From Okeania sp. KiyG1 (GTDB lineage Bacteria; Cyanobacteriota; Cyanobacteriia; Cyanobacteriales; Microcoleaceae), in assembly GCF_014132355.1 (NCBI RefSeq), contig NZ_BLZO01000153.1:1-64000 (forward strand): 64,000 nt of DNA. Reading direction: 5' to 3'. Of this stretch, positions 38,715 to 63,837 are shown piece after piece. The position numbers and the translations under genes were made by a program. The notes under the pieces were generated by a model that saw nothing but the letters and a program-made list of their open reading frames with translations, did no database searches and was not told the origin of the DNA. Each line of letters begins with the position of its first letter. The stretch's first letter is position 1.

Positions 38715-40552
38715 CCACTACCGCCGGATGATTCCCCTACTCCTAGAGACCTTAGAATTTCGCTCCAACAACGACATTCATCGCCCCGTAATTCAAGCAA
38801 TAGAGCTACTCAAGAAATACGCTCAAAGTAAAGCTAGATACTATGAAAATGGAGAAAATATACCCATTGATGGAGTGTTAAAAAGTGGTTGGAAAGAAAT
38901 CCTTTTAGAAAAAGAGGAAGATGGAAAAGAACGCATTAACCGCATTAATTACGAAATCAGTGTTTTACAAACCCTTCGAGAAAGATTATCCTGTAAAGAA
39001 ATCTGGGTAACAGGAGCATATCGCTATCGAAATCCTGATGAAGATTTACCTACAGATTTTGAACAACATCGTCAAGTTTATTATCAAGCTTTAACCTTAC
39101 CAGAAGATGTAGAAACCTTCGTCCGTAACCTACAACAAAAAATGGCTGACTCCTTAGAAAAATTAGACAAAGGAATGCCTGATAACCCAGATGTTAATAT
39201 TGTCGGAAAAAATCAAGGTTTAATTAGACTTAGCCCATTCCCTGCAGTAAATGAACCTCTAAACCTCAAACAACTAAAAGGAGAAATTAATCGTATTTGG
39301 CATCAAACCAGCTTATTAGATATTCTCAAAGAGACAGATTTAAGGGTTAATTTTACTCGGAACTTCAAGAGTATGGGAACACGGGAAATTATTGATAGAG
39401 AAACGCTACAAAAAAGATTACTGCTTTGCCTCTACGGTATGGGAACAAATACAGGATTGAAACGCATTAATACAGGTATCAATGGCGAAAACTATCAAGA
39501 TTTACTCTATGTCCGCCGTCGCTATATTCATAAAGAACAATTACGCAGTGCCATTACTGAAGTTATTAATGGTATCTTTGAGATTCGTTTACCACAGATT
39601 TGGGGAGAGGGAACCACAACTTGTGCCAGTGACAGTAAACATTTTGGAGCTTGGGAACAGAATTTAATGAACCAATACCACCTCCGTTATAGAGGTCGAG
39701 GAGTGATGATTTATTGGCACGCCATCGAAAAACTCAGCCTGCATTTATTCTCAACTCAAAACTTGTTCTTCAAGCGAGGTGACTGCAATGATTGAGGGTG
39801 TTTTACGTCATTGTTCTAGTATGGAAGTTGAGAAAAACTATGTAGATAGTCACGGACAAAGTGAGATAGCTTTTGCTTTTACCCATTTGTTAGGATTTCA
39901 ATTAATGCCACGGTTAAAGCGAATTAAGGTACAAAAATTGTATCGTCATTATGTTGGCCAGCCAGAAGCTTATCCTAATTTACAACCAATTCTTACCCGT
40001 CCTATTAATTGGGATTTAATTCGGACTCAGTATGACCAAATGGTAAAATATGCCACAGCCTTGAGATTAGGAACGGCAGAAACAGAAGCTATTTTAAAAC
40101 GTTTTAGAAAAAATTCTTTCAAACATCCAACTTATTTAGCTTTAATAGAATTAGGAAGAGTTATTAAAACAATTTTTTTGTGTGAATATCTTAATTCAGA
40201 AGCAGTACGAAGGGAAATAAATGAAGGTTTAAATGTTGTGGAAAGATGGAATGGGGTGAATGATTTTATTTTCTACGGAAAAGGGGGTGAATTTGCTTCT
40301 AATCGTCTAGAAACTCAGGAATTATCAGTATTATCTTTGCATTTATTACAAAATTGTTTGGTGTATGTGAATACCTTGATGATTCAGAGTGTATTGGCAG
40401 AGCCACATTGGTTTAAAAGGTTGACGGAGACAGATTTACGGGCTATTACACCTTTGATTTTTAGTCATGTTAATCCTTATGGTACATTCAAGCTAGACCT
40501 CAAAGAAAGAATTGCTCAGTTGAGCAATTCTTCTGTGGCGATCAGAAACTAG
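38695..40552 (+). pseudogene. tnpA: Tn3-family transposase fragment, 5'-truncated and frameshifted
   Basis: Two overlapping frames (from 38695 to 39795 and from 39779 to 40552) carry the C-terminal two-thirds of a Tn3-type TnpA: NHYRRMIPLLLETLEFRSNN at the start, ASDSKHFGAWEQNLMNQYHL (a catalytic Asp region), then [19 protein letters not shown] and the closing [16 protein letters not shown]. The N-terminal third is missing. A frameshift at an A5 run (39728-39732) breaks the rest; one more A would rejoin [14 protein letters not shown]. No Tn3 terminal repeat, resolvase or res site was seen. The fragment begins exactly at the break point of the CHAT gene. Confidence 0.85.
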
Positions 40553-40708
40553 AGATAATAATGAGTCTGACGGTACTCTGCAACGTGGAGTGAATAGTTT
40601 TTGAGGGAACGGGCGCGCGGACAAACTTGGCTCTAACCTATACTACATAATACTTGTAGCTACATTTCACACTTGAGATACACGCGCTCAACACTCACTT
40701 TTCAGAGC

Positions 40709-40729
40709 AAGAGTATTATTAATACTCTT
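40709..40729. terminator. Hairpin with T run between the transposase fragment and the recombinase fragment
   Basis: AAGAGTATT (40709-40717) and AATACTCTT (40721-40729) pair around a 3-nt loop and continue into a T-rich run on the forward strand. It lies between two convergent genes, so it can serve as a bidirectional terminator. The rest of the 40553-40778 gap holds no gene. Confidence 0.5.
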
Positions 40730-40778
40730 TTATTATGGGAAAATTTTGTCGCATTAATATATATTAAATATATACTTA

Positions 40779-41259
40779 TCAGTCATTTTTTAATAGTATT
40801 TGTAAAGCGTTTTGAGCAACTTGTTCTGCTCTTAATGATGTAACTTTTTGATACTTTAGAGTAGTTTGAATGTGAGAATGACCCATCAAGGCCCGTAGTT
40901 CCTCAATTCCCATTAAACCCACTCTTTCTGTGGCAAAAGTATGACGTAAATCATGTAGCCTCACTCCTGTTAATATGGGACTTTGATTGGTTAATTCTCG
41001 CCATAAGCTATAAACTCGATGATAGGATAATCGGGTAATAATTTCGGTTAATGGATGTTTTGCTGTAAATAGGGCTTTATGAGGTTTGTGTCGATAATAT
41101 TGGATATATTTTTCTAAAAGAATAGCAGAATCTTTACTATAAAAACACCAGCGTTTTTTATTCCCTTTACCTATGACTTGAAATTTACAATTATCTCGGT
41201 CAATATCTTCTAAATTTAAGGACAATAATTCACTGATTCTTGCTCCTGTGCGATGTAGA
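40779..41259 (-). pseudogene. Tyrosine recombinase fragment (C-terminal catalytic half)
   Basis: The conserved catalytic residues are visible: Arg in RTGARISELL at the upstream end, HDLRHTFATE, the His/Trp-type box in LMGHSHIQTT and the nucleophile Tyr in LKYQKV. The frame is open up to 41259, where it meets the mini-element, and the N-terminal half is absent on the other side of that element. The only start in the frame is a TTG at 41225. It is therefore a truncated integrase, probably inactive alone. Confidence 0.8.
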
Positions 41260-42305
41260 TGTAACGGCTCGCAAACAAAAACGCTTCAGCTCGCAAACAA
41301 GGCAATTTTCAGCTCACATTAACTGCAAATAAAAACACCCTTCAGCTCACATTAACTGCAAATAAGCTCAGATTATTTGCAAACAGCTCACAAACAAGAT
41401 TTTCAGCTCACATTAATTGCAAATAAGCTGTAAGCTTTTTGATGCCTAGATTACAAACTTTAAAACATACACTGTCCCCACTGTAAAGACAAATGTCTAC
41501 AGCTAATCCTCACTCCACAAGGGCAGAGTAGTATCAATACTCTGTCCATAACATAATTTTCCAAGTTAAAAATATATTTAGAGGTATATTATTACAGCAA
41601 TTAATTTGAGGGTTTATTATCTAAATTTGTCAAGATAATTTAAGCTTTTTATACAGCTTATTTTTCACATAATTGAATAGCTTTTTCAGACGCTACAAGA
41701 GCAGAAACATTATTATCAATTAAACTATTAATTTTGCTAATCTCTATCAGATTAACTCTTCCTAAATAGCTAAATCCTGTTGAAATTATTGAGATTTCAA
41801 CTTTTAAGCCTAATATGTTGGGCAATTTAATTGTGGATTTACTGTATACTTTCAACGAAAATAATTATGCAAATTGCCTAGTAAGTACATTTTTAAAAAT
41901 TGATAATATAAGTATAAAACAAGGTAATTAATGTTTAATATGTAGTAGAATATATTCATTAAATATATATACTAATTAGTCAATAATATATATACTTTTA
42001 TATATATTATTGACTAGAGAAAAGACCTCAATTAGGGATAAAACGTCGTTTTACTATCAAAAAGGCACTTAATTGGACATTATATGGCCAATGATTTAGA
42101 CAAAAAGACTATAATACTTTCTGTGTCAAAGTTACAGGCTATTTGCAGTTAATGTGAGCTGAAAATTCTGTTTGCGAGCTATTTGCAAATAATTTGAGCT
42201 GATTTGCAGATAATGTGAGCTGAAAGCTGTTTTTATTTGCAGTTAATGTGAGCTGAAAATTAGCTTGTTTGCAAGCTGAGGCGTTTTTGTTTGCAAGCCG
42301 TTACA
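41260..42305. mobile_element. Mini-element A, Tn7-like ends with repeated internal sites (1046 bp)
   Basis: The left end TGTAACGGCTCGCAAACAAA is repeated inverted at the right end (last bases TTTGCAAGCCGTTACA). Inward of both ends are several copies of a roughly 22-bp site with core CACATTAACTGCAAAT (left at about 41311, 41344, 41365 and 41405; right at about 42140, 42181, 42203 and 42235). TGT...ACA termini with multiple internal transposase-binding repeats are typical of Tn7-like elements. No transposase is inside. The flanks (GTAGA and CCTAT) show no 5-bp target duplication, so the element sits at a rearrangement boundary. It truncates the recombinase gene on its left. Confidence 0.65.
41658..41855 (-). 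CDS. Small ORF inside mini-element A, unknown (65 aa)
   Basis: The frame lies in the middle of mini-element A. The product starts MKVYSKSTIKLPNILGLKVEI and has a beta-strand-like start and a helical end (ALVASEKAIQLCE). There is no recognised family and no strong ribosome binding site. It is the only plausible cargo of this element. Confidence 0.3.
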   Translation of the reverse strand: MKVYSKSTIKLPNILGLKVEISIISTGFSYLGRVNLIEISKINSLIDNNVSALVASEKAIQLCEK

Positions 42306-42359
42306 CCTATATCTTAATCCATTTAGGATTGCTATATAACTTTTATTTAAGGAAAATTG

Positions 42360-43718
42360 ATGACACAAACCGTTAGTTCCACTACTGAGGAAAATCTGAA
42401 TTTAGGTATTCTCGCTAAAGAAGCTGGAATTGCCCTAGTCATAAAATTTGCGGGTATTCTTCTGACTTATTTAGTGCAAGTTTTCCTCGCCCGATGGATT
42501 GGCAGAACCGAGTATGGCATTTATGAATATGTCGTTGCTTGGTCTGTCCTCTTAGCCATTCCCGCAGGATTGGGTTTACCCCATACCGTTTTGCGATTTG
42601 TCTCCCAGTACCGGGTGAAAGAAGAATGGGAACTGTTGCGGGGGATCGTGCGCAGCAGTTGGTTGATGACTATTCTAGCTAGTCTCTTAGTTAGCTTGCT
42701 AGCTGCTGGTGTAATTTTACTGCTCAATTATTACCACCCCTTTGCTTATGCCATTCCTTTATTAATCGGTATCGGTCTCATCCCGCTACAAGCCCTAGTG
42801 AAGTTGCAATTAGAAACAGCTAGAGCGGCCAAGGATGTTACTTTAGGTTATGCGCCATCACAAATAATTTGGCCAGTCTTGCTAATCTGTGGCGCATTTC
42901 TGTTCTTAGAGACCAATCGCGCTCTCACAGGAATTTCTGCGATCGCTATCTCTCAAATAACCTTGCTAGCAGTTGTCTTATTCCAGTTGGGATTATTATT
43001 GCTGAAGTTAAACCAAGAATTTGTTGCTAGCAAACCGATCTATGCCATTCGAGAGTGGTTGGGTGTTGCTTTTGTGGTGTTATTACAGTCCGGTTGTTTC
43101 CTCATTCTCAGTAAAACTGACACGATTATGGTGGGTTCAATATTGGGACCGTCCGAAGCAGGGATGTACGCTGCGGCACTGAAGACGGCTAAATGGGTTG
43201 GTTTTGTACCGACAATTATCAATATAGTCGCCGCTCCTAGTTTCGCAGCCCTGTATGCTAAAGAGGATATTGACGGTCTCCAAAAAGTGGTTGGAACAGT
43301 TGCCTTGTGGATTTTCTGGCCTTCTTTGGCTATTTCCTTATTTCTAATCCTCTTCAGTCAACCGGTTTTAGGAATATTTGGCTCGGAATTTATTACCGCC
43401 AATTGGCAGTTAAAGATTTTGGTGTTAGGACGGGCGATTAACTCTTGGTGCGGTCCTGTCTCCACCTTGATGATTATGACGGGGAATCAAAATAAATCCG
43501 CGATGGTTTTTGTTTATGCAACTGCCATCAATATCGTGTTAAATGCGATCGCGATTCCTCTCATTGGCGCGATCGGTGCAGCTATGGTTACAACTCTTAC
43601 TTTCGCCATGTGGAATATTTTGCTGAGTTTTTTAGTCGTGAAATATGTGGGAGTAAGTCCCCTAGTTTTCAGGGGACTTTTTCAACGGGATTCCTCAAAA
43701 TCTGAGATAGGGACCTAA
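42360..43718 (+). CDS. Wzx/MurJ-like (MOP superfamily) flippase of the NRPS cassette (452 aa)
   Basis: Twelve or more hydrophobic segments of the polysaccharide/oligosaccharide flippase (PST/MOP) type are visible, beginning near residue 30 (ALVIKFAGILLTYLVQVFLA) with the family-like IGRTEYGIYEYV shortly after. The ATG at 42360 has AAGGA in front; the frame is also open from a TTG at 42357. It probably exports a lipid-linked or peptide product across the membrane. The 3' end overlaps the 3' end of the NRPS gene by 24 bases in convergent orientation. A role in exporting the NRPS product is inferred from location. Confidence 0.75.
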   Translation: MTQTVSSTTEENLNLGILAKEAGIALVIKFAGILLTYLVQVFLARWIGRTEYGIYEYVVAWSVLLAIPAGLGLPHTVLRFVSQYRVKEEWELLRGIVRSSWLMTILASLLVSLLAAGVILLLNYYHPFAYAIPLLIGIGLIPLQALVKLQLETARAAKDVTLGYAPSQIIWPVLLICGAFLFLETNRALTGISAIAISQITLLAVVLFQLGLLLLKLNQEFVASKPIYAIREWLGVAFVVLLQSGCFLILSKTDTIMVGSILGPSEAGMYAAALKTAKWVGFVPTIINIVAAPSFAALYAKEDIDGLQKVVGTVALWIFWPSLAISLFLILFSQPVLGIFGSEFITANWQLKILVLGRAINSWCGPVSTLMIMTGNQNKSAMVFVYATAINIVLNAIAIPLIGAIGAAMVTTLTFAMWNILLSFLVVKYVGVSPLVFRGLFQRDSSKSEIGT

Positions 43719-46700
43719 TCCCTTCGCTAAGGCTTCACTGTAGATTATAGAGTAATGGTCGCCAGCAATTTTGTGGATATTGATGCCACCAGCAGCTAGA
43801 GAACTCCAACCTTGAATGTGTTCTTCAGCTAATTGTTCCAATGTTTTCTCCGCACAGAAAAGATTAATCCGACCCGAGTAAGGCTGGGGTACATAACTAT
43901 AGCTGGCTAGGCTGTTAGCTTGGTAAACGGCAAATAGCTGACGAATCTGCTCTAGACCCATTTCTGGTGGCAAAAGTTGAACTCTTGTTCCCTCCTTAAA
44001 AATATAGTTTAATTTCTCGTCCAACCCCAGTTGCTCCAGTCGATTTGCTGACACTGGCAGTTCTTTGTGAAAAAGACGACTTAGAGACCCGGCAAAAGAA
44101 GTTACAAGCCTGGCTTCATCTGGTAATGGTTTTTTGAACAAGAAAGGAGAAAAGGGATCTATCAATGCCAAGAGTGATATTTCATGTCCTAAAGAGCTTA
44201 ACTGTTGGGCTATCTCAAAAGCGATCTTAGCACCCAAACAGAAACCGCCAAGTTGGTATGGTCCTTGAGGTCTAACAGTTTGTATTGTTTTGATAAAAGA
44301 GGTAGCCATGTCCTCAAAGCTAGTTAAAGGCTTTTCTTCTCCATTGAGTCCAACAGATTGCAGAGCATAGAAAGGTTGTTCCACACCCAATTGGCGAGCT
44401 AAGTCTGCTAAACACAGAACAATGCCTCCCCTGGGATGAACGCAGAAAAATGGTGGCTTTGAACCGGTTTGCCGAATTGGAACTAAAGGTGAAAAACTTT
44501 GAGTATTGGGGGTACTAGTGAGTAAACGACCTTGGCTTTCAATGGTAGGTTCGGTAAACAGAGTTGTCAAAGGCAGTCTCATTCCAAACTGTTGTTCGAT
44601 GCTCGCCATTAAGCGCAACCCTAACAGGGAATGACCGCCTAAGTCAAAGAAGTTATCTCGCACTCCCACGGAGGGTAGATTGAGAACCTCCGACCAAATT
44701 TGTGCCAGTTGCAGTTCTGTGGTGGTACGGGGGGGGATTTCTCCTACTTCCTGGGTAGAAACATCCGGTGCGGGTAAAGCATGTCGGTTTACCTTGCCAT
44801 TGGGAGTCAAGGGCAGAGACTCCAAGATGACAAAAGCTGCCGGAATCATGTAATCGGGTAGCTTGCTTTTCGCGAAGCTGCGCAATTCACTCATGACCGG
44901 TTGAGAGCCCTTGGCTACTACATAGGTAACCAGGCGTTTATTCCCGGGATTATCTTCGAGGGCAATAACCACCGCTTCTTTGACTTGAGGGTGCTGTGCC
45001 AGTACCGCTTCGATTTCTCCCAGTTCAATCCGGTACCCCCTCAGCTTGACCTGGAAATCTTTGCGCCCGAGAAATTCAATCCCGCCATCGGGTCCCAGGC
45101 GACCGATATCTCCCGTGCGGTAAATTCGCTTGTTGCCCCCTTCTGGGTCGGCTATAAAAACCTTATCAGTCCGCTGAGGTTGCCGCCAATAGCCCAGGGC
45201 GATATAGGGACTGCGAATCCCGATTTCCCCATAGAAATCCGTGACCTGGCCGTTGTCGTCGAACAAGATAATTTCTGTTTCTTCGATCGGATAACCTACG
45301 GGAACCCGATGACCTACTTCTGTTTGTCGATCGATAAAATATTGTAAGGTAACAGTCGATTCTGTCGGTCCCAGACCATTGACCAAGATACAGTCCCCAC
45401 CGAAGTACTGTTGGTAAATTTGCACATCTTGGGGTGTGACCTCCTCTCCTCCGAGGACAATTAAACGCATCTGCGGCAACTTTTGTGCTACCGTCAGGTG
45501 ACTCTCCAAGTGCCGGAATACAGTGGGGGTGGAGTGATAAATGGTAATCCCGGACTGCTGAAGATAAGTAGGCAGAGGAACTAAACCTTCAGACTTGATG
45601 TCGAAGGGATACAGGGTCGCACCATTTAACAAGGCAGCAAAGATATCCATAATTGCCGCATCAAAGGATATGGATGACAGCAGGGTTAACTTATCAGAGG
45701 AGGTGATTTTGAGATTATTGGTATAGTTCCTGATGAAATGCAGCACGTTGCGATGATTTTGCATCACCCCTTTAGGAACTCCAGTAGAACCGGACGTGTA
45801 GAGTATATATGCGAGTTGGTCTGGGGAAATTTCCGGTTTCATTACAGAGCCATCATCTGTGACATCTTCCTTATCAATATTGATGATGGTTATTGCCTCG
45901 GGGCATAATTCCACCGCTAATTCCCGATTCCGGTTGTTGGTCGCTATTGCCGTTGCCTGAGAATCTTCGAGAATATAAGCGAGTCTTTCTCTGGGATAGC
46001 TCGGGTCGAGGGGCACATAGGTTTTTCCGGCTTTGAGTACTCCTAAAATTGCTGCTATTGCCGGGGCATCATGTTCCAATAGCAGGGCAATTCGTTGTTG
46101 GGCACCACCGCATTTGTTGAGGACTATTCCTGCGACCCCCTCGGCCTTCCGTTCTAGTTCTGTATAAGTCCATTGGTAATTTGGGGTTTTGATGGCTAGA
46201 TTCTGGGGATATTGCCGAACCTGTTGAGCAAATCGCTCTGGGAGCGATCGCTCTATTTCTGTTCGCGCAAATTCCCTAAAGGCAAGGCTTGGAGAAATCT
46301 GCTCCCTGAGATCGGGATAATGCTTATGTTCGGTTCTTAATAGAGCCAAACCTGAGAGCCTCTGTTGGGGTACGTTGACTATCTGCTCTAATAAATACTG
46401 ATAGTGTTCCAGCAGTTGAGACATTCTCAGGGAACTAAATAGCTCGGCGTTGTACGATAATGTCAGTTGGATACTCTCATTGGTTTGGAGAACGTACAGG
46501 GTTAAGTCAAACTTAGACTGAGCAACTCCTAAAGAGAGTTTTTCTACTGTCAGCCCTGGGAGTGACAAGGGACGACGGGGCACGTTCACCATATCGAACC
46601 AAACTTGAAAGAGAGGATTGCGACTTAAATCTCGCTCCGGTTGCAACTGTTCGACGAGCTTCTCAAAGGGCATATCTTTATGAACATAAGCCCCCAAGGT

Positions 46701-49700
46701 TACTTCCCGCACTCGTCCTAATAATTCCCCAAAGCTGGGATTACCCCCCAAGTCAGTTCGCAACACTAGGGTATTGACAAAAAACCCGATCGAACCTTCG
46801 AGTTCCGTGCGATCGCGGTTGGCTATGGGGGTGCCGATAATGATATCCGACTGCCCCGAATAGCGCGATAGCAATACTTTGAATGCTGCCAGTAAGGTCA
46901 TGTACAATGTCACGCCTGACTGACGACTTAACTCTTTGAGGGATGATGTGAGTTCTTCTGATAGTTGGAAAGATTCTTTCCCACCGGTGTAAGTTTGCAC
47001 TCTGGGACGGGGGTAATCTAGGGGCAGTTCTAAGACCGGTAGCTCTCCTCCTAATTGCTGTTTCCAGTAGTTGAGTTGGGTTTCTAATACTTCCCCTTGT
47101 AACCACTGCCTCTGCCAGGCGGCATAGTCGCCATATTGAATGGGCAATTCTGCTAATGGTGACGGTTTACCACAACTGAAAGCTTGATAGATCGCGGACA
47201 ACTCTTGGCGCAAAATTCCCCTCGACCAGCCATCAAAAGCAATATGATGCACGTTCAATAGCAAAATATGCTTTTGGTCTTCTAGTTGCAATATACTCGC
47301 CCGCAGTAAAGGCGCTTGTTCTAAATCAAACGGTTGCTTGGCGAATGCTTCTGTCAACTTTTGCACTTCCAGCGATCGGTCCGGTTCTGATAATTCCCGT
47401 AGGTCGATGACCGGTACAGTTAGTTGACAGTCTGGTGCGATCGCCATCCGCGCCACACCAGAGACTGACTTAAAGCTAGTCCCCAGGACTGAGTGGCGAC
47501 GGATTATTTCTGTGAGGGATTGTTCGAGGGCATCTATGTTGAGTCCCCCAGTTAGCTGCCATACCGTCGGCATATTGTAGGCAGAGGTATCTCCTGCTTC
47601 TAGTTGGTGGAGGAACCACAGTCGTTCTTGGGCAAAACTTAAGGGCAAATCTTGCTCGCTCGATACCCTCTCGATGGCTGGGGCGATGGCCAGTTGCTCA
47701 TCATTTTGACTCCTGCGGTTGAGTTGTGCTTCTAGTTCGGCTACTGTGGGGGCTTCAAAGATACTGCGTAGGGGGATTTCTACCTCGAAGGTTTCTCGCA
47801 ACCTGGAAATGACTTGAGTTGCGAACAGAGAATGTCCTCCCAGTTCAAAAAAGTTGTCGTGAATTCCGCAGCCTTCGATGCCCAAGACAGATGAGATGAT
47901 TTCGGCGAGTAACTCTTGGGCTGGAGTTTGGGGGCCGACAAAAGAAGCCGATGTGGTGGAGTCTAGTTCCGGTGCTTTTAAGGCACGTCGGTTCACCTTG
48001 CCGTTGGGAGTTAAGGGTAGAGATTCCAAGATGACAAAAACAGCCGGAATCATGTAATCGGGTAGCTTACTTTTGAGGAAGGAGCGCAATTCACTCTTGA
48101 CCGGTTGAGATCCCTTGGCTACTACATAGGCAACAAGGCGCTTCTCTGAGGGATTGTCTTGGAGGGCAATAACCACGGCTTCTTTGACTTGAGGGCGTTG
48201 TGCCAGCGCAGCTTCTATTTCCCCCAGTTCAATCCGGTATCCCCTGAGCTTGACCTGGAAATCTTTGCGCCCGAGAAATTCGAGGCTGCCATCCGGTCTC
48301 AGGCGACCGATATCTCCCGTGCGGTAAATCCGTCGGTTGCCCCCGTCTGGGTCGGCCAAAAAAACCTTGTCGGTCAGCTGAGGTTGCCGCCAATAGCCCA
48401 GGGCGATATAGGGACTGCGAATCCCGATTTCCCCGTAGAAATCCGTGACCTGGCCGTTGTCGTCGAACAAGATAATTTCTGTTTCTGCGAGGGGATAACC
48501 TACTGGAACTTGATTACCGACCTCTGTTTGGCGATCGATAAAATACTGTAAGCTAATGGTCGATTCTGTCGAACCCATCAGATTGACTAAGATACAGTTC
48601 TCACTGAAGTGCTGAAGGTAGATCTCGACATCTTGAGGTTTGACCTCCTCTCCTCCTAAGACGATTAAACGCATCGGCGACAAACAGTCTGCTGCCGTCA
48701 GGTGGCTCTTCAAGTGCCGGAATACAGTGGGGGTGGAGTGATAAATTGTCATCCCGGACTGCTGAAGATAAGTAGGCAAAGGAGCTAGACCTTCAGACTT
48801 GATGTCGAAGGGATACAGGGTCGCACCATTTAACAAGGCTGCAAATATGTCCACAATTGCCGCATCAAAGCAGAGGGATGACAGCAGGGTTAACTTATCA
48901 TTGGGCGTAATTTTGAGATTATTGGTGTAGTTCCTGATGAAATGCAGCACGTTGCGATGATTTTGCATTACCCCTTTAGGAACTCCGGTAGAACCTGAGG
49001 TGTAGAGTATGTATGCGAGTTGGTCTGGGGCAATTTCCGGTTTCATCACAGAGCCATCATCTGTTACATCTTCCTTATCAATATTGATGAGGGTTATTGC
49101 CTCCGGGCATAATTCCACTGCCAATTCCCGATTCGCGTTGTTGGTCGCTATGGCCGTTGCCTGAGAATCTTCGAGAATATAAGCGAGTCTTTCTCTCGGA
49201 TAGTTCGGGTCGAGGGGCACATAAGTTTTTCCGGCTTTGAGGACTCCTAAAATTGCTGCTATTGCCAGGGCATCATGTTCCAATAGCAGGGCTATGCGTT
49301 GTTGGGCGCCACCGCATTTGTCGAGGACTATTCGTGCCACTCCCTCCGCCGTCCGTTCTAGTTCCGTATAAGTCCATTGGTAATTCTTGGTTTTGATGGC
49401 TAGATTCTGGGGATATTGCCTCACCTGTTGAGAAAATCGCTCTGGGATCGATCGCTCTATTTCTGTGCGTACAAATTCCCTAAATTCTTTCTCCGCAGGA
49501 ATCTGGTTCGCCAGGAGAGGAGTATGCTTATGTTCGGTTCTTAATAGAGCCAAACCTGAGAGCCTCTGTTGGGGATTATTGACAATCTGCTCTAATAAAT
49601 ACTGATAGTGTTCCAGCAGTTGGTCCATTCTCAGGGAACTAAATAGCTCGGCGTTGTACGATAATGTTAGTTGAATGCTCTCATGGGCTTCTCGAACATA

Positions 49701-50645
49701 TAGAGTTAAGTCAAACTTAGACTGAGCAGCTCCTAAAGAGAGGTTTTCTACTGTCATTCCTGGGAGTGACAAGGGACGACGGGGCACGTTCACCATGTCG
49801 AACCAAACTTGAAATAGGGGATTGCGACTCAAATCTCGCTCGGGTTGCAACTGTTCGACCAGCTTCTCAAAGGGCATATCTTTATGAGCATAAGCCCCCA
49901 AGGTTACTTCTCGCACTCGTCCTAATAATTCCCCAAAGCTGGGATTACCCCCCAAGTCAGTTCGCAACACTAGGGTATTGACAAAAAAGCCGATAAGACC
50001 TTCGAGTTCCGTGCGATCGCGGTTGGCTATGGGGGTGCCTACAATCATATCTGACTGCCCCGAATAACGTGATAGCAATACTTTGAATGCTGCCAGTAAA
50101 CTCATGTACAACGTCACCCCTTCCTGGCGGCTCAACTCTTTGAGGGATGATGTGAGTTCTTGGGAAAGTTGCAAATATTTTTTGCCGCCCCTGTAGGTTT
50201 GCACTTTGGGACGGGGGTAATCTAGGGGCAGTTCTAATACCGGTAGCTCCGGTGATAATTGCTGTTTCCAGTAGTTGATTTGGCTTTCTAATACTTCCCC
50301 TTGTAACCACTGCCTTTGCCAGGCTGCATAGTCGGCATATTGGAGCGGTAATTCTGCTAATGGTGACGGTTTACCACAACTCAAAGCTTGATAAATCACC
50401 GACAACTCTTGGCGCAAAATTCCCCTCGACCAGCCATCAAAAGCAATATGATGCACGTTCAATAGTAAAACATGCTTTTGCTCTTCTAGTTGCAATATCT
50501 TCCCCCGCAGTAACGGTGCTTGTTCTAAATCAAACGGTTGCTTACCTTCGGCCTCTGTCAACTTTTGCACTTGCAGGGATTGGTCCGGTTGTGATAATTC
50601 CCGTAGGTCGATGACAGCCAAAGTTAGTTGACACTCTGGTGCCAG
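43695..50645 (-). CDS. NRPS modules 2 and 3 with terminal thioesterase (C-A-T-C-A-T-TE)
   Basis: Residue numbers refer to the open frame that extends back to 50825; its first 60 residues are out-of-frame noise. Condensation motif HHIAFDG at 125-131, adenylation core YTSGSTGVPKG at about 608-618, carrier LGGHSL with Ser999; then C3 (HHIAFDG 1193-1199), A3 (about 1676) and T3 (about Ser2066, LGGHSLL). A type I thioesterase closes it (about 2100-2376) with GGFCLG, so Cys2196 replaces the usual Ser, plus Asp2223 and His2356. It continues the frame of the upstream NRPS gene after an indel near 50640-50655. The product is a peptide; all three adenylation pockets look alike and unlike codes I know. 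Confidence 0.85.
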   Translation of the reverse strand: MAPECQLTLAVIDLRELSQPDQSLQVQKLTEAEGKQPFDLEQAPLLRGKILQLEEQKHVLLLNVHHIAFDGWSRGILRQELSVIYQALSCGKPSPLAELPLQYADYAAWQRQWLQGEVLESQINYWKQQLSPELPVLELPLDYPRPKVQTYRGGKKYLQLSQELTSSLKELSRQEGVTLYMSLLAAFKVLLSRYSGQSDMIVGTPIANRDRTELEGLIGFFVNTLVLRTDLGGNPSFGELLGRVREVTLGAYAHKDMPFEKLVEQLQPERDLSRNPLFQVWFDMVNVPRRPLSLPGMTVENLSLGAAQSKFDLTLYVREAHESIQLTLSYNAELFSSLRMDQLLEHYQYLLEQIVNNPQQRLSGLALLRTEHKHTPLLANQIPAEKEFREFVRTEIERSIPERFSQQVRQYPQNLAIKTKNYQWTYTELERTAEGVARIVLDKCGGAQQRIALLLEHDALAIAAILGVLKAGKTYVPLDPNYPRERLAYILEDSQATAIATNNANRELAVELCPEAITLINIDKEDVTDDGSVMKPEIAPDQLAYILYTSGSTGVPKGVMQNHRNVLHFIRNYTNNLKITPNDKLTLLSSLCFDAAIVDIFAALLNGATLYPFDIKSEGLAPLPTYLQQSGMTIYHSTPTVFRHLKSHLTAADCLSPMRLIVLGGEEVKPQDVEIYLQHFSENCILVNLMGSTESTISLQYFIDRQTEVGNQVPVGYPLAETEIILFDDNGQVTDFYGEIGIRSPYIALGYWRQPQLTDKVFLADPDGGNRRIYRTGDIGRLRPDGSLEFLGRKDFQVKLRGYRIELGEIEAALAQRPQVKEAVVIALQDNPSEKRLVAYVVAKGSQPVKSELRSFLKSKLPDYMIPAVFVILESLPLTPNGKVNRRALKAPELDSTTSASFVGPQTPAQELLAEIISSVLGIEGCGIHDNFFELGGHSLFATQVISRLRETFEVEIPLRSIFEAPTVAELEAQLNRRSQNDEQLAIAPAIERVSSEQDLPLSFAQERLWFLHQLEAGDTSAYNMPTVWQLTGGLNIDALEQSLTEIIRRHSVLGTSFKSVSGVARMAIAPDCQLTVPVIDLRELSEPDRSLEVQKLTEAFAKQPFDLEQAPLLRASILQLEDQKHILLLNVHHIAFDGWSRGILRQELSAIYQAFSCGKPSPLAELPIQYGDYAAWQRQWLQGEVLETQLNYWKQQLGGELPVLELPLDYPRPRVQTYTGGKESFQLSEELTSSLKELSRQSGVTLYMTLLAAFKVLLSRYSGQSDIIIGTPIANRDRTELEGSIGFFVNTLVLRTDLGGNPSFGELLGRVREVTLGAYVHKDMPFEKLVEQLQPERDLSRNPLFQVWFDMVNVPRRPLSLPGLTVEKLSLGVAQSKFDLTLYVLQTNESIQLTLSYNAELFSSLRMSQLLEHYQYLLEQIVNVPQQRLSGLALLRTEHKHYPDLREQISPSLAFREFARTEIERSLPERFAQQVRQYPQNLAIKTPNYQWTYTELERKAEGVAGIVLNKCGGAQQRIALLLEHDAPAIAAILGVLKAGKTYVPLDPSYPRERLAYILEDSQATAIATNNRNRELAVELCPEAITIINIDKEDVTDDGSVMKPEISPDQLAYILYTSGSTGVPKGVMQNHRNVLHFIRNYTNNLKITSSDKLTLLSSISFDAAIMDIFAALLNGATLYPFDIKSEGLVPLPTYLQQSGITIYHSTPTVFRHLESHLTVAQKLPQMRLIVLGGEEVTPQDVQIYQQYFGGDCILVNGLGPTESTVTLQYFIDRQTEVGHRVPVGYPIEETEIILFDDNGQVTDFYGEIGIRSPYIALGYWRQPQRTDKVFIADPEGGNKRIYRTGDIGRLGPDGGIEFLGRKDFQVKLRGYRIELGEIEAVLAQHPQVKEAVVIALEDNPGNKRLVTYVVAKGSQPVMSELRSFAKSKLPDYMIPAAFVILESLPLTPNGKVNRHALPAPDVSTQEVGEIPPRTTTELQLAQIWSEVLNLPSVGVRDNFFDLGGHSLLGLRLMASIEQQFGMRLPLTTLFTEPTIESQGRLLTSTPNTQSFSPLVPIRQTGSKPPFFCVHPRGGIVLCLADLARQLGVEQPFYALQSVGLNGEEKPLTSFEDMATSFIKTIQTVRPQGPYQLGGFCLGAKIAFEIAQQLSSLGHEISLLALIDPFSPFLFKKPLPDEARLVTSFAGSLSRLFHKELPVSANRLEQLGLDEKLNYIFKEGTRVQLLPPEMGLEQIRQLFAVYQANSLASYSYVPQPYSGRINLFCAEKTLEQLAEEHIQGWSSLAAGGINIHKIAGDHYSIIYSEALAKGLGPYLRF
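46511..47477. repeat. Copy 2 of a 967-bp duplicated condensation-domain segment
   Basis: This stretch (condensation domain of module 3) appears identical to 52912-53878 (module 1), offset by 6401 bp. The flanking NRPS sequence diverges at both ends. It indicates recent gene conversion or duplication between modules, or an assembly collapse. Confidence 0.7.
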
Positions 50646-53600
50646 CGACCTATACGGGCCACACCTGAGACCGACTGAAAGCTCGTCCGTAGAACTTCGT
50701 GACGTCTGATTATTTCTGTGAGGGATTGTTCGAGGGCATCTATGTTGAGTTTCCCAGTTAGCTGCAATATACTCGGCATATTGTAGGCAGAGGTATCTCC
50801 TTGTTCTAGTTGGTGGAGGAACCACAGTCGTTCTTGGGCAAAACTTAAGGGCTTCTCGGAGTTCTCTACCCTCCCGATGACTGGGGCGATGGGGAGTTGC
50901 CCCTCATTTTGACGGTTGAGTTGTGCTTCTAGTTGGGCAACCGTGGGCGCTTCAAAGATACTGCGTAGGGGCATTTCTACCGCAAAGGTTTCTCGCAACC
51001 TGGAAATGACTTGAGTTCCGAACAGGGAATGTCCCCCCAGTTCAAAGAAGTTGTCGTGAATTCCGACTTGTTCAATTCCCAAGACTGATGCGTAGATGTC
51101 CGCCAGTAACTCTTGGGCTGGAGTTTGGGGGCCGACAAAAGGAGCCGATGTGCTGGAATCTAGTTCCGGTGCTTTTAAGGCACGTCGGTTCACCTTGCCG
51201 TTGGGAGTCAAGGGCAGAGACTCCAGCATGACAAAAGCTGCCGGAATCATGTAATCGGGTAGCTTGCTTTTCGCGAAGCTGCGCAATTCACTCATCACCG
51301 GTTGAGAGCCCTTGGCTACTACATAGGCTACCAGCCGTTTATCCCCGGGATTGTCTTCGCGGGCAATAACCACGGCTTCTTTGACTTGAGGATGTTTTAG
51401 CAGCACTGCTTCTATTTCCCCCAGTTCAATCCGGTACCCCCTCAGCTTGACCTGGAAATCTTTGCGCCCTACAAATTCAATCCGGCCATCGGGTCCCAGG
51501 CGACCGATATCTCCCGTGCGGTAAATTCGCTTGTTGCCCCCTTCCGGGTCGGCAATAAAAACCTTGTCGGTTAGTTGAGGTTGCCGCCAATAGCCCAGGG
51601 CGAGGTAGGGACTGCGAATCCCGATTTCTCCATAGAAAGGAGTGACCTGGCCGTTGTCGTCGAACAAGATAATTTCTGTTTCTTCGAGGGGATAACCTAC
51701 TGGAACTTTATTGCCGACCTCTGTTTGGCGATCGATAAAATATTGTAAGCTAATGGTCGATTCTGTCGAACCCATCAGATTTACCAATCTACAGTTTTCA
51801 TGGAAGTGCTGTTGGTAAATCTGCACCTCTTGGTGTTTAACCTCCTCTCCTCCCAGGACAATGAAACGCATCTGGGGTAAACTGTCTGGTTCCGAAAGGT
51901 GGTTCGTCCAGTGTCGGTAAACGGTGGGGATGGAGTGATAAATGGTAATCTCTTCGTGCTGAAGATAAGTAGGCACTGGAGCTAGACCTTCAGACTTGAG
52001 GTCGAATGGGTACAGGGTCGCACCATTTAATAAGGCCGCAAATATGTCCACAATTGCCCCATCAAAGCAGAGGGATGACAGCAGGGTTAACTTATCAGAG
52101 GAGGTTATTTTGAGATTATTGGTGTAGTTCCTGATAAAATGCAGCACGTTGCGATGATTTTGCATCACTCCTTTGGGTCGTCCGGTGGAACCCGACGTGT
52201 AGAGTATGTATGCGAGTTGCTCTGGGGCAATTTCTGGTTTGCTGTGGGACCAATCTCCCGCTACATCCATAATATCGATATTGATGAGCCTCATTTCCTC
52301 TGGCAGCAATTCCACCGCCAATTCCCAATTCTGGTTGTTGGTTACCACCGCCGTTGTCTGAGAATCTTCTAAGATATAAGCCAGCCTTTCTCTGGGATAG
52401 CTTGGGTCTAGAAAAACATAAGTTTTTCCGGCTAAGAGGACTCCTAAAATTGCTGCTATTGCTGGGGCATCATGTTCCAATAGCAGGGCAATTCGTTGTT
52501 GGGCACCACCGCATTTGTTGAGGACTATTCCTGCGACTCCCTCCGCTTTACGTTCTAGTTCTGTATAAGTCCATTGGTAATTTGGGGTTTTGATGGCTAT
52601 ATTCTGGGGATATTGCCGAACCTGTTGAGAAAATCGCTCTGGGAGCGATTGAGAGATTTCTGTTCGCGCAAATTCCCTAAAGGCAAGGCCCGGAGCAATC
52701 TGCTCCCTAAGCTCGGGATAATGCTTCTGGGAGGTTCTTAATAGAGCCAAACCTGAGAGCCTCTGTTGGGGTAAGTTGACTATCTGCTCTAATAAATACT
52801 GATAGTGTTCCAGCAGTTGAGACATTCTCAGGGAACTAAATAGCTCGGCATTGTACGCCAATGTTAGTTGAATGCTGCGATCTGTTTCTCGAATATATAG
52901 AGTTAAGTCAAACTTGGACTGAGCAACTCCTAAAGAGAGTTTTTCTACTGTCAGCCCTGGGAGTGACAAGGGACGACGGGGCACGTTCACCATATCGAAC
53001 CAAACTTGAAAGAGAGGATTGCGACTTAAATCTCGCTCCGGTTGCAACTGTTCGACGAGCTTCTCAAAGGGCATATCTTTATGAACATAAGCCCCCAAGG
53101 TTACTTCCCGCACTCGTCCTAATAATTCCCCAAAGCTGGGATTACCCCCCAAGTCAGTTCGCAACACTAGGGTATTGACAAAAAACCCGATCGAACCTTC
53201 GAGTTCCGTGCGATCGCGGTTGGCTATGGGGGTGCCGATAATGATATCCGACTGCCCCGAATAGCGCGATAGCAATACTTTGAATGCTGCCAGTAAGGTC
53301 ATGTACAATGTCACGCCTGACTGACGACTTAACTCTTTGAGGGATGATGTGAGTTCTTCTGATAGTTGGAAAGATTCTTTCCCACCGGTGTAAGTTTGCA
53401 CTCTGGGACGGGGGTAATCTAGGGGCAGTTCTAAGACCGGTAGCTCTCCTCCTAATTGCTGTTTCCAGTAGTTGAGTTGGGTTTCTAATACTTCCCCTTG
53501 TAACCACTGCCTCTGCCAGGCGGCATAGTCGCCATATTGAATGGGCAATTCTGCTAATGGTGACGGTTTACCACAACTGAAAGCTTGATAGATCGCGGAC

Positions 53601-54289
53601 AACTCTTGGCGCAAAATTCCCCTCGACCAGCCATCAAAAGCAATATGATGCACGTTCAATAGCAAAATATGCTTTTGGTCTTCTAGTTGCAATATACTCG
53701 CCCGCAGTAAAGGCGCTTGTTCTAAATCAAACGGTTGCTTGGCGAATGCTTCTGTCAACTTTTGCACTTCCAGCGATCGGTCCGGTTCTGATAATTCCCG
53801 TAGGTCGATGACCGGTACAGTTAGTTGACAGTCTGGTGCGATCGCCATCCGCGCCACACCAGAGACTGACTTAAAGCTCGTTCGTAGAACTTCGTGACGT
53901 CTGATTATTTCTGTGAGGGATTGTTCGAGGGCATCTATGTTGAGTCCCCCAGTTAGCTGCGATACCGTCGGCATATTGTAGGCAGAGGTATCTCCTGCTT
54001 CTAGTTGATGAAGGAACCACAATCGTTCTTGGGCAAAAGAAGGAGGAATGTCACTGCGGTCATCTATTCGTTTGATAGTGCGATAATTCGTATTAGAAGT
54101 TCGTCCAAAGCGATCGCTTTGTAAAAAAGCAATTATTTCTGCTTTTTGCTCTTTAATTTGGACTCGCAACTCTGGAGTTAGCGATCCTTTTGGAGCGTTA
54201 AACTTAAGGCGATCGCCCTCTACCCAGAGTTTGATATCCAAACTGCCAATGTAAGATAAAAGTTCTGCTGTTGCCTTAAATTTTTTCAT
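50624..54289 (-). CDS. NRPS module 1 (TubC dock, C-A-T) and start of module 2
   Basis: A TubC-type N-terminal docking domain (about residues 1-58, LWVEGDRLKF and LTPELRVQIKEQK) shows that an upstream synthetase subunit is expected. Then come condensation (HHIAFDG 214-220), adenylation (YTSGSTGRPKG 697-707, GK at 1031-1032), carrier (LGGHSL, Ser1088) and the first 90 residues of a second condensation domain. The frame ends by a 2-nt excess near 50640-50655 at what would otherwise be a GCGATCGC site; the next frame continues the same domain. Repaired, the two frames make one NRPS of about 3531 residues (C-A-T)x3-TE. It starts 2 bases after the sulfotransferase fragment. Confidence 0.85.
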   Translation of the reverse strand: MKKFKATAELLSYIGSLDIKLWVEGDRLKFNAPKGSLTPELRVQIKEQKAEIIAFLQSDRFGRTSNTNYRTIKRIDDRSDIPPSFAQERLWFLHQLEAGDTSAYNMPTVSQLTGGLNIDALEQSLTEIIRRHEVLRTSFKSVSGVARMAIAPDCQLTVPVIDLRELSEPDRSLEVQKLTEAFAKQPFDLEQAPLLRASILQLEDQKHILLLNVHHIAFDGWSRGILRQELSAIYQAFSCGKPSPLAELPIQYGDYAAWQRQWLQGEVLETQLNYWKQQLGGELPVLELPLDYPRPRVQTYTGGKESFQLSEELTSSLKELSRQSGVTLYMTLLAAFKVLLSRYSGQSDIIIGTPIANRDRTELEGSIGFFVNTLVLRTDLGGNPSFGELLGRVREVTLGAYVHKDMPFEKLVEQLQPERDLSRNPLFQVWFDMVNVPRRPLSLPGLTVEKLSLGVAQSKFDLTLYIRETDRSIQLTLAYNAELFSSLRMSQLLEHYQYLLEQIVNLPQQRLSGLALLRTSQKHYPELREQIAPGLAFREFARTEISQSLPERFSQQVRQYPQNIAIKTPNYQWTYTELERKAEGVAGIVLNKCGGAQQRIALLLEHDAPAIAAILGVLLAGKTYVFLDPSYPRERLAYILEDSQTTAVVTNNQNWELAVELLPEEMRLINIDIMDVAGDWSHSKPEIAPEQLAYILYTSGSTGRPKGVMQNHRNVLHFIRNYTNNLKITSSDKLTLLSSLCFDGAIVDIFAALLNGATLYPFDLKSEGLAPVPTYLQHEEITIYHSIPTVYRHWTNHLSEPDSLPQMRFIVLGGEEVKHQEVQIYQQHFHENCRLVNLMGSTESTISLQYFIDRQTEVGNKVPVGYPLEETEIILFDDNGQVTPFYGEIGIRSPYLALGYWRQPQLTDKVFIADPEGGNKRIYRTGDIGRLGPDGRIEFVGRKDFQVKLRGYRIELGEIEAVLLKHPQVKEAVVIAREDNPGDKRLVAYVVAKGSQPVMSELRSFAKSKLPDYMIPAAFVMLESLPLTPNGKVNRRALKAPELDSSTSAPFVGPQTPAQELLADIYASVLGIEQVGIHDNFFELGGHSLFGTQVISRLRETFAVEMPLRSIFEAPTVAQLEAQLNRQNEGQLPIAPVIGRVENSEKPLSFAQERLWFLHQLEQGDTSAYNMPSILQLTGKLNIDALEQSLTEIIRRHEVLRTSFQSVSGVARIGRWHQSVN
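52912..53878. repeat. Copy 1 of a 967-bp duplicated condensation-domain segment
   Basis: This copy encodes about 320 residues of the module 1 condensation domain, from SVSGVARMA to AQSKFDLTLY. It is apparently identical to 46511-47477. The boundary at 53878/47477 is marked by differing bases (TTAAAGCTCG against TTAAAGCTAG). Confidence 0.7.
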
Positions 54290-54291
54290 TG

Positions 54292-54805
54292 TTAAATTTC
54301 TCCTTCTTCTCGGTTGTTATCTGTAACATTCATTTTTTCATACCCCAACTCTTCTGCCACCTGCCAAGTTTCTTCTGCTAAAAAATCGACTTGGTAATCT
54401 TCCTTCCAGCGATCGGCAGCTTTAGCATCAATACTCTTGTGAGTATGAAACTTGGGGTCGCCCACCATTCTAGATACAGAATCAATACTATCACTCATAC
54501 GCTGTTTCTTTTCCTTATACGGTTGGAGCATATCGACATGGAAATCCAACCCTATAAATTCACATAACAGATTAACAGTGCTTTGGGGTTGTTGCACTAA
54601 ATCTTCATACTTAACCCGATGCTGACGGGAACTCGGTACATTTTTCAGGAATTTTAGTATATTGTCATGACATATCGACCACATTAATTCTCCCTTTTGT
54701 TTGACCGAGAATCTCATATCGTCGGTGTCTTCTGCCATCCCTAGTAACAAATCTAACCTTATCTCTTCCACAGAATGAATCATGGCCAAGGGATGACGCA
54801 GTAGG
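54292..54805 (-). pseudogene. Sulfotransferase, N-terminally truncated by mini-element B
   Basis: The remaining part, LLRHPLAMIHSVEEIRLDLL to the C-terminus (RWKEDYQVDFLAEETWQVAE), matches sulfotransferases found in cyanobacterial NRPS/PKS clusters, including the WSICHDNILKFL and PYKEKKQRMSDS blocks. The N-terminal PAPS-binding part is absent: the frame runs into mini-element B at 54805/54806 and continues only as noise to 54894. It lies 2 bases upstream of the NRPS module 1 gene, so it was probably its partner or the tail of a larger synthetase. It is likely inactive. Confidence 0.8.
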
Positions 54806-55344
54806 TGTAGCGGCCAGCAATAAGATGTAGCGACCAGCAATCTTATTGCCCTCGACCAGCAATAACGAACTTTTTGAGCCAAGATTAACTGCAACTATAT
54901 TTGTGTTTGAGCCAGAATTAACTGCAACTAGCCAGCAATAACTTTTTTAGGCCAGAGTTAATTGCAAATAGTCTAAAACTTTTGTAGCATCTACATTTCC
55001 CAACAAAGGAATTGTTGGTGTGGTAAATTAACTCGTCATTAATCACAATACTTTTACTTTGAAAGATTTACGGCTTTCTTAACTTGAAAAAGCCGATTTT
55101 CTCGTTGACTCAGGTATATGAACCAGGAGTAAAAAAACGTTCGTTTTCTTTACACGTCTAGTTGCAGTTAATTCTGGCTCAAAAAAGTTATTGCTGTCTG
55201 GTTGCATTTAATTCTGGCTCAGTTGCAGTTAATTCTGGCTCAGTTGCAGTTAATTCTGGCTCAAACGTTAATCTAGTTGCAATTAATCCTGGCTCAAAAG
55301 TTCGTTATTGCTGGTCCGGGGCTTTCTTATTGCTGGTCGCTACA
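54806..55344. mobile_element. Mini-element B, Tn7-like ends with repeated internal sites (539 bp)
   Basis: The left end TGTAGCGGCCAGCAATAAGA matches, inverted, the right end TATTGCTGGTCGCTACA. Internal copies of AGCCAGAATTAACTGCAACT-type sites occur twice near the left end (54876 and 54910, plus a variant at 54951) and five times near the right (about 55159-55294). The TTAACTGCAA core and the TGTARCGGC ends are shared with mini-element A, so both belong to one transposon family. No transposase is inside. The flanks (GTAGG and GGTAA) show no target duplication. It truncates genes on both sides. Confidence 0.65.
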
Positions 55345-56167
55345 GGTAATTAATTCTTTGATGTTTTGATTAGAGATGATATAATCTTCTGGATTATCTT
55401 CATATTTGTTATTAAAAATATCCGTAATTAAATCTTCTGCTAATATTGAATATTTTTCAAATAATAGATGATTTAATTGTTCATCTATCACTATGTCTGA
55501 AGAATCAATAACCTTGATAGTTCCTAAGTCATCACCGAGCCAATCTCCCAATCGTTCATCATTATAAAATTTGAATATTTCTCCCTGACGAACTATCACT
55601 AAATCATTCATGTTTGATAGGGAGTGTAGAGCATTTTGGATAATATCTGCTTTGTTGAATTCCACTCCTAATTTACCTATACCCATTAGGTAATCATTTG
55701 GGTTTATTTCTCCTTGAGATTGAATATCTTCTATTAAGTTGTCAATGTCGATACTATATGTATCTCTGAGTAGTTGTTTTTCCCGTTCTGGTAGTTCCAA
55801 TCTTTCATCATCCTTAAAAAAATACTGTGCCAAATAATTCTTTGTCTTGGTGTATATATGCTGTAGTAGAATTATTTCGGGTGGCAATTAAGTCGGTATT
55901 ATACCCGTTCAGGATATCAATAAAATACTCTAAACTATCAATGATGTCTTGATTAAACCACCATGCTGCTCTTTCTACAGCCTCTTCTATAGTTTTTGTA
56001 TGGTTTGAAAATGCTGTTTCATGGCTTATGAAGAATAGACCTTTACTTTCGTCTTTATCGGTGATTTTTACCCAGTCACTACTATTTTTATCATCTGTTT
56101 CATAGAGCATTACTTGGCTATCATCAATAGCTTCTAATGTCCAGTTTTCTGATACTAATGGTTCGAT
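55345..56167 (-). pseudogene. 3' part of the adenine-methyltransferase gene, frameshifted and cut by mini-element B
   Basis: A frame starting IEPLVSENWTLEAIDDSQV continues the methyltransferase gene if one A is removed from a run of eight (56168-56175). It covers about 113 codons and ends TVFF at a second homopolymer (A7, 55816-55822). Removing one T there continues into KDDERLELPEREKQLL and about 160 further residues, which end at the mini-element border (ELIT, then CSDQQ from the element). The region is acidic and helical with no recognised domain. Repaired, the whole gene would be about 768 aa. It is probably a broken single gene rather than two separate small genes. Confidence 0.6.
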
Positions 56168-61648: not shown

Positions 61649-61752
61649 TTGGACTTTGGACAAAAAAAAGTAGTTAGCGTAATAGTTACACTAACTACCA
61701 AAATTAAGGTTTAAAGACCGAATTCATACTGGAATTATCTTTGTTTTTGACA

Positions 61753-62181: not shown

Positions 62182-62257
62182 GAGACTGAATAGTTAAGAA
62201 AGGATTTATGTTGGCGTAAAATATACACTAACATTCAGAGGTGTATTATTCACAACC

Positions 62258-63703: not shown

Positions 63704-63837
63704 TAGTGGGCGACAACTCTTAATTATTGCCATTTTTCAGTGATTAAATTCACTGGAGACAGAGAAATATTTCTCTAATATAGTTAGCGTAAATATTACG
63801 CTAACTGTTTTCTTTTTGTCCAAAGTCCAATTCATAA

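What the first reader, a model, noticed from the sequence alone, without database searches (positions are those of the whole stretch)
41260..55344. NRPS cassette framed by two mini-elements of the same Tn7-like family
Seen: elements at 41260-42305 and 54806-55344 have TGTARCGGC ends, inverted repeats, and multiple inward-facing copies of a site with core TTAACTGCAA. Known: Tn7-like transposons have TGT/ACA ends with arrays of transposase-binding sites. Neither element has a transposase or a target duplication, and every gene touching them is truncated (recombinase, sulfotransferase, methyltransferase). Inference: they are deletion derivatives that served as recombination or one-ended transposition points for moving the flippase-NRPS block.
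Basis: partly seen in the sequence, partly recalled or inferred. Interest (0 to 1): 0.75.

Follow-up and report, generated by a model that had tools for sequence, protein, structure and literature searches.

The report
Gutted jumping genes flanking NRPS genes
Two short stretches beside a natural-product gene block in a cyanobacterium are stripped-down copies of a widespread but little-described kind of transposon, and one of them sits at an apparent chromosome breakpoint whose other half lies elsewhere in the same genome.

Summary
The two mini-elements are real. E1 is 41260-42305; E2 is 54826-55344, preceded by a 20-bp stub of another end (54806-54825). Both have symmetric TGT/ACA ends with arrays of one site.

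Full elements with these ends exist. They are not Tn7-like in the strict sense: they encode a TnsB-like DDE transposase and a TnsC/MuB-like ATPase, no recognised TnsA, no firm TniQ, and duplicate 6 bp (NNTANN), not 5. The nearest label is "IS481-like ISAzs36". E2's kin carry a serine resolvase; E1's kin a tyrosine recombinase with an HTH/zinc-ribbon protein. E1 and E2 each keep both ends plus a dyad resembling the matching resolution site, so they are probably mobilisable in trans.

E2 marks a breakpoint. Its right flank and the left flank of its near-identical copy on contig C13 share GGTAAT; joined, they match one gene that is contiguous in four relatives. I favour replicative inversion or recombination between copies; misassembly at the 520-bp repeat remains possible.

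Transfer of the NRPS block as a composite is not supported: its outer flanks (TGTAGA/GGTAAT) differ and E1 and E2 belong to different subfamilies. No orthologous block was seen in relatives (capped searches).

The parts
41260..42305 (.). Mini-element E1, derivative of the tyrosine-recombinase subfamily
   Evidence: Positions 1-432 match L134 4966-4533 reversed (82%), 828-1046 match L134 218-1 reversed (86%)
41260..41437 (+). E1 end array (recombinase side of the parent)
42128..42305 (-). E1 opposite end array
41525..41543 (+). Candidate tyrosine-recombinase core site AGAGTA-N7-TACTCT
   Evidence: Exactly 2 matches in the window, 0 in 100 shuffles; also in the parents L134 and L138
54826..55344 (.). 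Mini-element E2, derivative of the serine-resolvase subfamily
   Evidence: Near-identical copy on C13, 519 of 520 columns; ends 80-88% like the full element on C82/C64
54806..54825 (+). 20-bp stub of another end of the family
   Evidence: 20 of 20 bases match an end in L116; absent from the C13 copy
54826..54971 (+). E2 left end array, one 21-bp unit fewer
55157..55344 (-). E2 right end array, one 21-bp unit more
55129..55153 (.). Res-like dyad; core AAAACGTTCGTTTT at 55134-55147
   Evidence: Core found once in the window, 0 in 100 shuffles; same place between end and resolvase gene in the parents
55345..55350 (+). GGTAAT, candidate half of a 6-bp target duplication
   Evidence: Same six bases left of the C13 copy
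55351..55887 (-). Part of gene M cut by E2; the rest is on C13
   Evidence: Joined protein contiguous in 4 of 59 other genomes; DNA alignment through the junction at 91-96%
38728..41259 (.). Tn3-family remnant with the C-terminal part of a tyrosine recombinase (40779-41225, minus) cut by E1, and its own AGAGTA-N7-TACTCT dyad at 40710-40728
42357..54804 (.). Flippase (42357-43718, plus), NRPS genes (minus) and truncated sulfotransferase (minus) between the two elements

Best explanation
E1 and E2 are non-autonomous deletion derivatives of two subfamilies of one TnsB/TnsC-like, probably replicative, transposon family (nearest label IS481-like/ISAzs36). Each keeps both site-studded ends plus a dyad resembling the resolution site of its own recombinase type: a tyrosine-recombinase core in E1, a serine res-like dyad in E2. 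A full element supplying transposase and ATPase in trans could copy them, and the matching recombinase could resolve the cointegrate. Shown: parents, ends, the 6-bp NNTANN duplication rule, the retained dyads, the gene split between C153 and C13 with GGTAAT on both outer flanks, and its contiguous form in relatives. Inferred: that E2 copied itself into gene M within the chromosome, leaving one copy at each edge of a rearranged segment, so that the duplication is shared between two copies and each copy looks as if it had none. E1 and E2 thus mark joins between the NRPS block and unrelated DNA; they did not carry the block as a unit.
For: Parents and ends. Of 28 full elements with both flanks, 11 have an exact 6-bp duplication and TA stands at flank positions 3-4 in 27 of 28 left and 28 of 28 right flanks, against 6.6% background; 3 of 4 outer flanks of E1 and E2 also fit if the inner E2 end is used, 4 of 4 with the outer stub, and both flanks of the C13 copy fit. 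Retained dyads. Split gene M. The 20-bp stub is on the window copy only, as expected if the window-left/C13-right place was the donor.
Against: A second 6-bp match for the presumed donor flanks (ATAAGA/ATTAAA) is missing, so an earlier event must be assumed. The inner left flank ATAAGA lacks the central TA. In the complete genome HT-58-2 no exchanged 6-bp pair was found among six copies. E2 keeps the res dyad with one base less than its parents. Recombination between copies or a misassembly explain the C13/C153 pattern too. No full E1-type parent was found in this genome.
Confidence: 0.6

Rival explanations
1. Homologous or res-site recombination between two independently inserted E2 copies exchanged their flanks; transposition itself caused no rearrangement.
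For: The two copies are 519/520 identical; only one pair of flanks matches over six bases, as for one simple insertion in gene M recombined with another copy.
Against: Needs two insertions plus a recombination instead of one event; no direct test.
Confidence: 0.25
2. The C13/C153 exchange is a misassembly at the 520-bp repeat; in the cell E2 is a simple insertion in gene M with a GGTAAT duplication, and a second copy sits beside the sulfotransferase gene.
For: The repeat is nearly identical, the assembly has 198 contigs, and the alternative pairing restores an intact target gene.
Against: The assembly keeps apart two stretches of at least 13 kb that are 99.9% identical (C82/C64), which suggests long reads; this is inference. 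E1's junctions are not at such a repeat.
Confidence: 0.2
3. True Tn7-like or CAST-derived mini-elements.
For: TGT ends with site arrays; transposase model nearest ShCAST TnsB, ATPase model near MuB and ShTnsC. A TniQ match just under the cut-off (25 against 27 bits) in the HTH/zinc-ribbon protein of E1's kin, counted as over it (27.1-27.3) by the genome search's neighbour rule.
Against: 6-bp duplication; no recognised TniQ or TnsA frame in the resolvase-type elements; symmetric ends; no TniQ match in the own genome, while the same search rings in 14 of 60 genomes.
Confidence: 0.06
4. E1 and E2 moved the 12.5-kb flippase-NRPS block as a composite transposon.
For: The block lies between two elements of one superfamily with outward copies of ends on both sides.
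Against: Outer flanks TGTAGA and GGTAAT differ; E1 and E2 belong to subfamilies whose transposases are about 62% identical; GGTAAT pairs with C13 instead.
Confidence: 0.04

Closest known systems
ISAzs36-type ('IS481-like') transposons: recombinase family protein + DDE transposase + AAA ATPase
   Same: Gene order and about 60% transposase identity to the Azospirillum copy; 831 plasmid records match the transposase
   Different: E1 and E2 lack all genes; E1's kin use a tyrosine recombinase. The transposases score far below the NCBIfam IS481 cut-off (77 and 43 bits against 224)
Tn7-like transposons and type V-K CASTs
   Same: TGT/ACA ends with arrays, TnsB-like and TnsC-like folds
   Different: 6-bp duplication, symmetric ends, resolvase genes, no recognised TnsA, no firm TniQ, no Cas gene seen in the complete elements
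TIMEs (Tn3-derived miniature elements), PMC4133298 passages and PMC13367494 abstract
   Same: Non-autonomous, keep ends; some carry a resolution site
   Different: Derived from Tn3-family transposons with about 38-bp repeats; here long arrays of a TnsB-like family
Tn552 and Tn5053 families
   Same: Recalled: transposase, ATPase and resolvase gene set
   Different: Not compared by sequence here; the review gives Tn5053 a TniQ (passages)
Tn4651-type Tn3 transposons (TnpS/TnpT)
   Same: Recalled: tyrosine recombinase with a divergent partner gene
   Different: Partner here is an HTH/zinc-ribbon protein; no sequence comparison with TnpT made

Membership tests
Tn7-like | 5-bp target duplication | tested here: not met
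   11 of 28 full elements have an exact duplication, all of 6 bp
Tn7-like | TniQ-domain protein | tested here: inconclusive
   No other frame of 110 aa or more left unassigned in most resolvase-type elements, none recognised as TniQ; own genome 0 matches with ringing controls. E1's kin: HTH/zinc-ribbon protein at 25 bits, cut-off 27; profile comparison 2.7% on thin alignments
Tn7-like | TnsB-like transposase and TnsC-like ATPase | tested here: met
   Foldseek best matches; transposase model only pLDDT 70.5, pTM 0.44
Tn7-like | TGT/ACA ends with arrays of binding-like sites | tested here: met
   shared with IS481-like elements
Type V-K CAST | Cas12k gene and CRISPR array in the full element | tested here: not met
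   Complete elements of 3.7-5.0 kb are filled by the named genes; no dedicated Cas12k search was run
IS481 (NCBIfam NF033577) | Score over the curated cut-off of 224 bits | tested here: not met
   28 and 43 bits for the two halves from C82, 77 bits for L134
ISAzs36-type group | Same gene order and clear transposase homology | tested here: met
   for the parents of E2; E1's kin share transposase and ATPase only
Non-autonomous derivative (MITE/TIME-like) | Both ends kept, genes lost, parent known | tested here: met
Non-autonomous derivative (MITE/TIME-like) | Moves when transposase is given in trans | not testable with these tools
   Needs an assay
Composite transposon | Same short duplication outside both flanking elements | tested here: not met
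   TGTAGA against GGTAAT
Tn552/Tn5053 | Transposase homology to TniA or p480 | not tested
   No such sequence was compared

The most novel reading that the evidence does not exclude
E1's parents are a new branch of heteromeric (TnsB/TnsC-like) transposons in which a module of tyrosine recombinase, HTH/zinc-ribbon protein and AGAGTA-N7-TACTCT core site, shared with Tn3-family elements, replaces the serine resolvase. Its HTH/zinc-ribbon protein is a TniQ relative, tying TniQ-type proteins to cointegrate resolution.
Probability: 0.15. Interest if true: 0.72.

Novelty: new variant of a known kind. Interest (0 to 1): 0.5.

Why it matters
It gives a working definition (ends, site geometry, 6-bp NNTANN target rule, alternative resolution modules) for a common TnsB/TnsC-like transposon family that I found in print only in passing. 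Members without a recognised TniQ are natural controls for what TniQ adds in Tn7 and CAST systems. The split gene shows how such elements could join biosynthetic genes to unrelated DNA without leaving an ordinary target duplication, so breakpoints can be paired by looking for the same 6 bp at another copy.

Tried and rejected
Tn7-like or CAST origin: rejected in the strict sense on duplication length and gene content.

Composite transposition: outer flanks differ.

Open frames as proof of the split gene: rejected as proof. In one search other flank pairings also gave open frames (227 to 351 aa), so the case rests on the shared GGTAAT and on the relatives.

Exchanged duplications in HT-58-2 (six copies): three simple insertions, no 6/6 exchanged pair among the others.

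C82 against C64 flanks as halves of one gene: 5/6 match only, and the patatin-like frame on C82 seems to start outside the element (read by eye); dropped.

The first recombinase census was faulty for the serine resolvase because the query file held several proteins; redone. The 26-base res pattern found nothing in the window, since E2's dyad is one base shorter; the 14-base core was then used.

Viral-contig scan: 43 stretches matched a pattern, none confirmed. VIA-align lists are dominated by retroviral integrase cores and are not evidence against other families.

Absence claims are limited: one search scored 40 of 401 candidates, 40 candidates per genome, only 4 per genome.

Papers: PMC11406308 passages, PMC4133298 passages, PMC13367494 abstract and outline. 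Other hits were seen as listings only; none of the listings shows a description of this family. Tn552, Tn4651 and their proteins are recalled.
Full report
Observation. The window holds 14 TTAAYTGCAA sites against 0.8 expected by shuffling; 12 lie inside the two reported elements and read inward. E1 (41260-42305) has long inverted arms, 90% complementary. E2 runs 54826-55344. Its long sites start at about +60 and +93 as in E1, and its left and right ends differ from the others by loss and gain of one 21-bp unit. The extra TGTAGCGGCCAGCAATAAGA at 54806-54825 is a stub of another end of the family; it matches 20 of 20 bases of an end in L116, titled Okeania SIO2B3.

Host. The window lies on contig C153 of a 10.98-Mb genome of 198 contigs. 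G022, which the tool places in another genus of the family, is titled Okeania too. This is inference.

Parents. Full elements with E2-type ends lie on C82 and C64 (3746 bp each): serine resolvase, rve-type DDE transposase, AAA ATPase. In C82 the transposase is split by a frameshift and the resolvase frame is whole; in C64 the transposase frame is open (555 aa) and the resolvase frame is cut short. Full elements with E1-type ends are L134 (4966 bp, all but the last base of its contig) and L138 (4969 bp): transposase, ATPase, a divergent HTH/zinc-ribbon gene and a tyrosine recombinase. The transposase was found in 7 of 60 genomes, the own one included, some as fragments.

Family features. Of 78 loci from the genome scan I analysed 61; 17 were left out (L169, L171, L172, L174-L187, mostly partial or weak matches). 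31 of the 61 gave a TGT/ACA-bounded inverted repeat, and 28 of these have six bases on both sides; several are copies in one genome (six in HT-58-2). 11 of 28 carry an exact 6-bp duplication. TA stands at positions 3-4 in 27 of 28 left and 28 of 28 right flanks, against 6.6% TA in surrounding DNA. So full elements without a duplication nearly always still sit at proper targets, as expected when copies exchange flanks. Of the 31, 27 match one of two serine resolvase types (19 and 8), 3 a tyrosine recombinase (L119 at only 25% identity) and 1 (L141) neither. In plasmids 831 records match, and NCBI names include 'IS481-like element ISAzs36 family transposase'; but the transposases fall far below the NCBIfam IS481 cut-off. 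Predicted folds: transposase nearest ShCAST TnsB, then IstA, Tn7 TnsB and MuA by Foldseek (model pLDDT 70.5, pTM 0.44, and large rmsd over the full length, so the catalytic core is the firm part); ATPase nearest Cdc6/Orc1, MuB and ShTnsC (pLDDT 85.4).

What the mini-elements keep. E1 positions 1-432 match the recombinase-side end of L134 in reverse (82%), beyond the end array and into the 3' part of the recombinase gene, and include the dyad GGACAGAGTA-TTGATAC-TACTCTGCCC. AGAGTA-N7-TACTCT occurs exactly twice in the window, in E1 and beside the recombinase of the neighbouring Tn3-family remnant, and never in 100 shuffles. It was found in 20 of 208 fetched loci, which overlap: they cover this part of the window, E1-type elements or their fragments, and recombinase neighbourhoods. 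Tn3-family relatives L092 and L093 carry the same pair of recombinase and HTH/zinc-ribbon genes and the dyad; L094 has the gene pair but no dyad in the 165 bp looked at. E2 keeps a res-like dyad placed as in its parents; its 14-bp core occurs once in the window and never in shuffles, but the whole dyad is one base shorter than in the parents, and HT-58-2 elements lack this core. That these dyads are recombination sites is inference.

The breakpoint. A near-identical E2 (519 of 520 columns) lies on contig C13. The window's right flank begins GGTAAT and the C13 copy's left flank ends GGTAAT. Joining them over one GGTAAT gives a 381-aa frame; other pairings also gave open frames, so the frame alone proves little. 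The joined protein matches one contiguous gene in 4 of 59 other genomes at 87-93% over residues 15-381; the first 25 residues match in another frame, and two of the four hits contain one stop. The joined DNA aligns through the junction over about 1220 bp at 91-96% in those four. It is the only 6/6 match among the own-genome flank pairs compared. The 20-bp stub is on the window copy only. One copying event from window-left/C13-right into gene M explains all four junctions; recombination between two copies explains them too; a misjoin in the assembly is the third option. The presumed donor flanks (ATAAGA/ATTAAA) do not match each other, so some earlier event is needed in any of these readings.

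The left border. E1 cuts the tyrosine recombinase gene of the Tn3-family remnant. Homologues whose frames run on exist in G005:C72, G002:C110 and G002:C22 (90-92%). In the own genome only the 90 bp up to the element were found with the rest of the gene and its neighbour as query, other hits being at one repeated stretch; only 40 of 401 candidates were scored. E1's outer flank TGTAGA and E2's outer flank GGTAAT do not match, so the block shows no sign of having entered as a composite. For the block itself only domain-level matches were seen in the 5 other genus genomes (67-72%), and for 50600-54805 in 61 other family genomes (best 67% over 1.0 kb, 4 candidates scored per genome). 'Ancestral or moved' therefore stays open on the block side; on the gene-M side the present adjacency is derived, if the assembly is right.

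TniQ. The own genome gives no TniQ match, while the same search rings in 14 of 60 genomes, 10 of them over the cut-off; the 14 control genomes stay silent. Two of the 14 are the HTH/zinc-ribbon gene of E1's kin: just under the cut-off as a whole protein (25 against 27 bits), over it by the search's neighbour rule (27.1-27.3). Its Tn3-partnered relatives match TniQ weakly (L092, 15 bits) or not at all at E 1 (L093, L094), while plain HTH and zinc-ribbon models score well in all. A profile comparison with two larger TniQ proteins gave 2.7% probability on thin alignments. I leave this as a lead.

Verdict.

Noticed in passing
window 40710-41259; L092, L093, L134, L138: A module of tyrosine recombinase, divergent HTH/zinc-ribbon gene and AGAGTA-N7-TACTCT dyad is shared by Tn3-family elements and by the full relatives of E1, two unrelated transposon types.
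   Followed up: partly
L042:5117-18198 and L043:1-13082 (contigs C82 and C64): Two contigs share at least 13 kb at 99.9% identity and part exactly at the end of the full transposon: a large duplication, a strain variant or an assembly fork.
   Followed up: partly
window 44764-54805: Long stretches of the NRPS genes repeat each other at 87-92% DNA identity, as if modules were recently duplicated.
   Followed up: no
window 61649-63832; L041:11086-13268; L043:14807-16989: A 2.18-kb DDE_5-type transposase element is 99.95% identical in the window, on C13 near the E2 copy, and on C64; a further possible site for recombination between these contigs.
   Followed up: no
L041:14548-14740, L044:9040-9176, L045:527, L042:14154-14216: Lone or decayed ends of the same families elsewhere in the genome; the one on C13 is 94% like E1 and lies about 50 bp from the end of a PKS gene.
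   Followed up: partly
L141:672-3918 (Halomicronema): A 3.2-kb member with a clean 6-bp duplication (TCTAGG) but no match to the serine resolvases or tyrosine recombinase tested.
   Followed up: no
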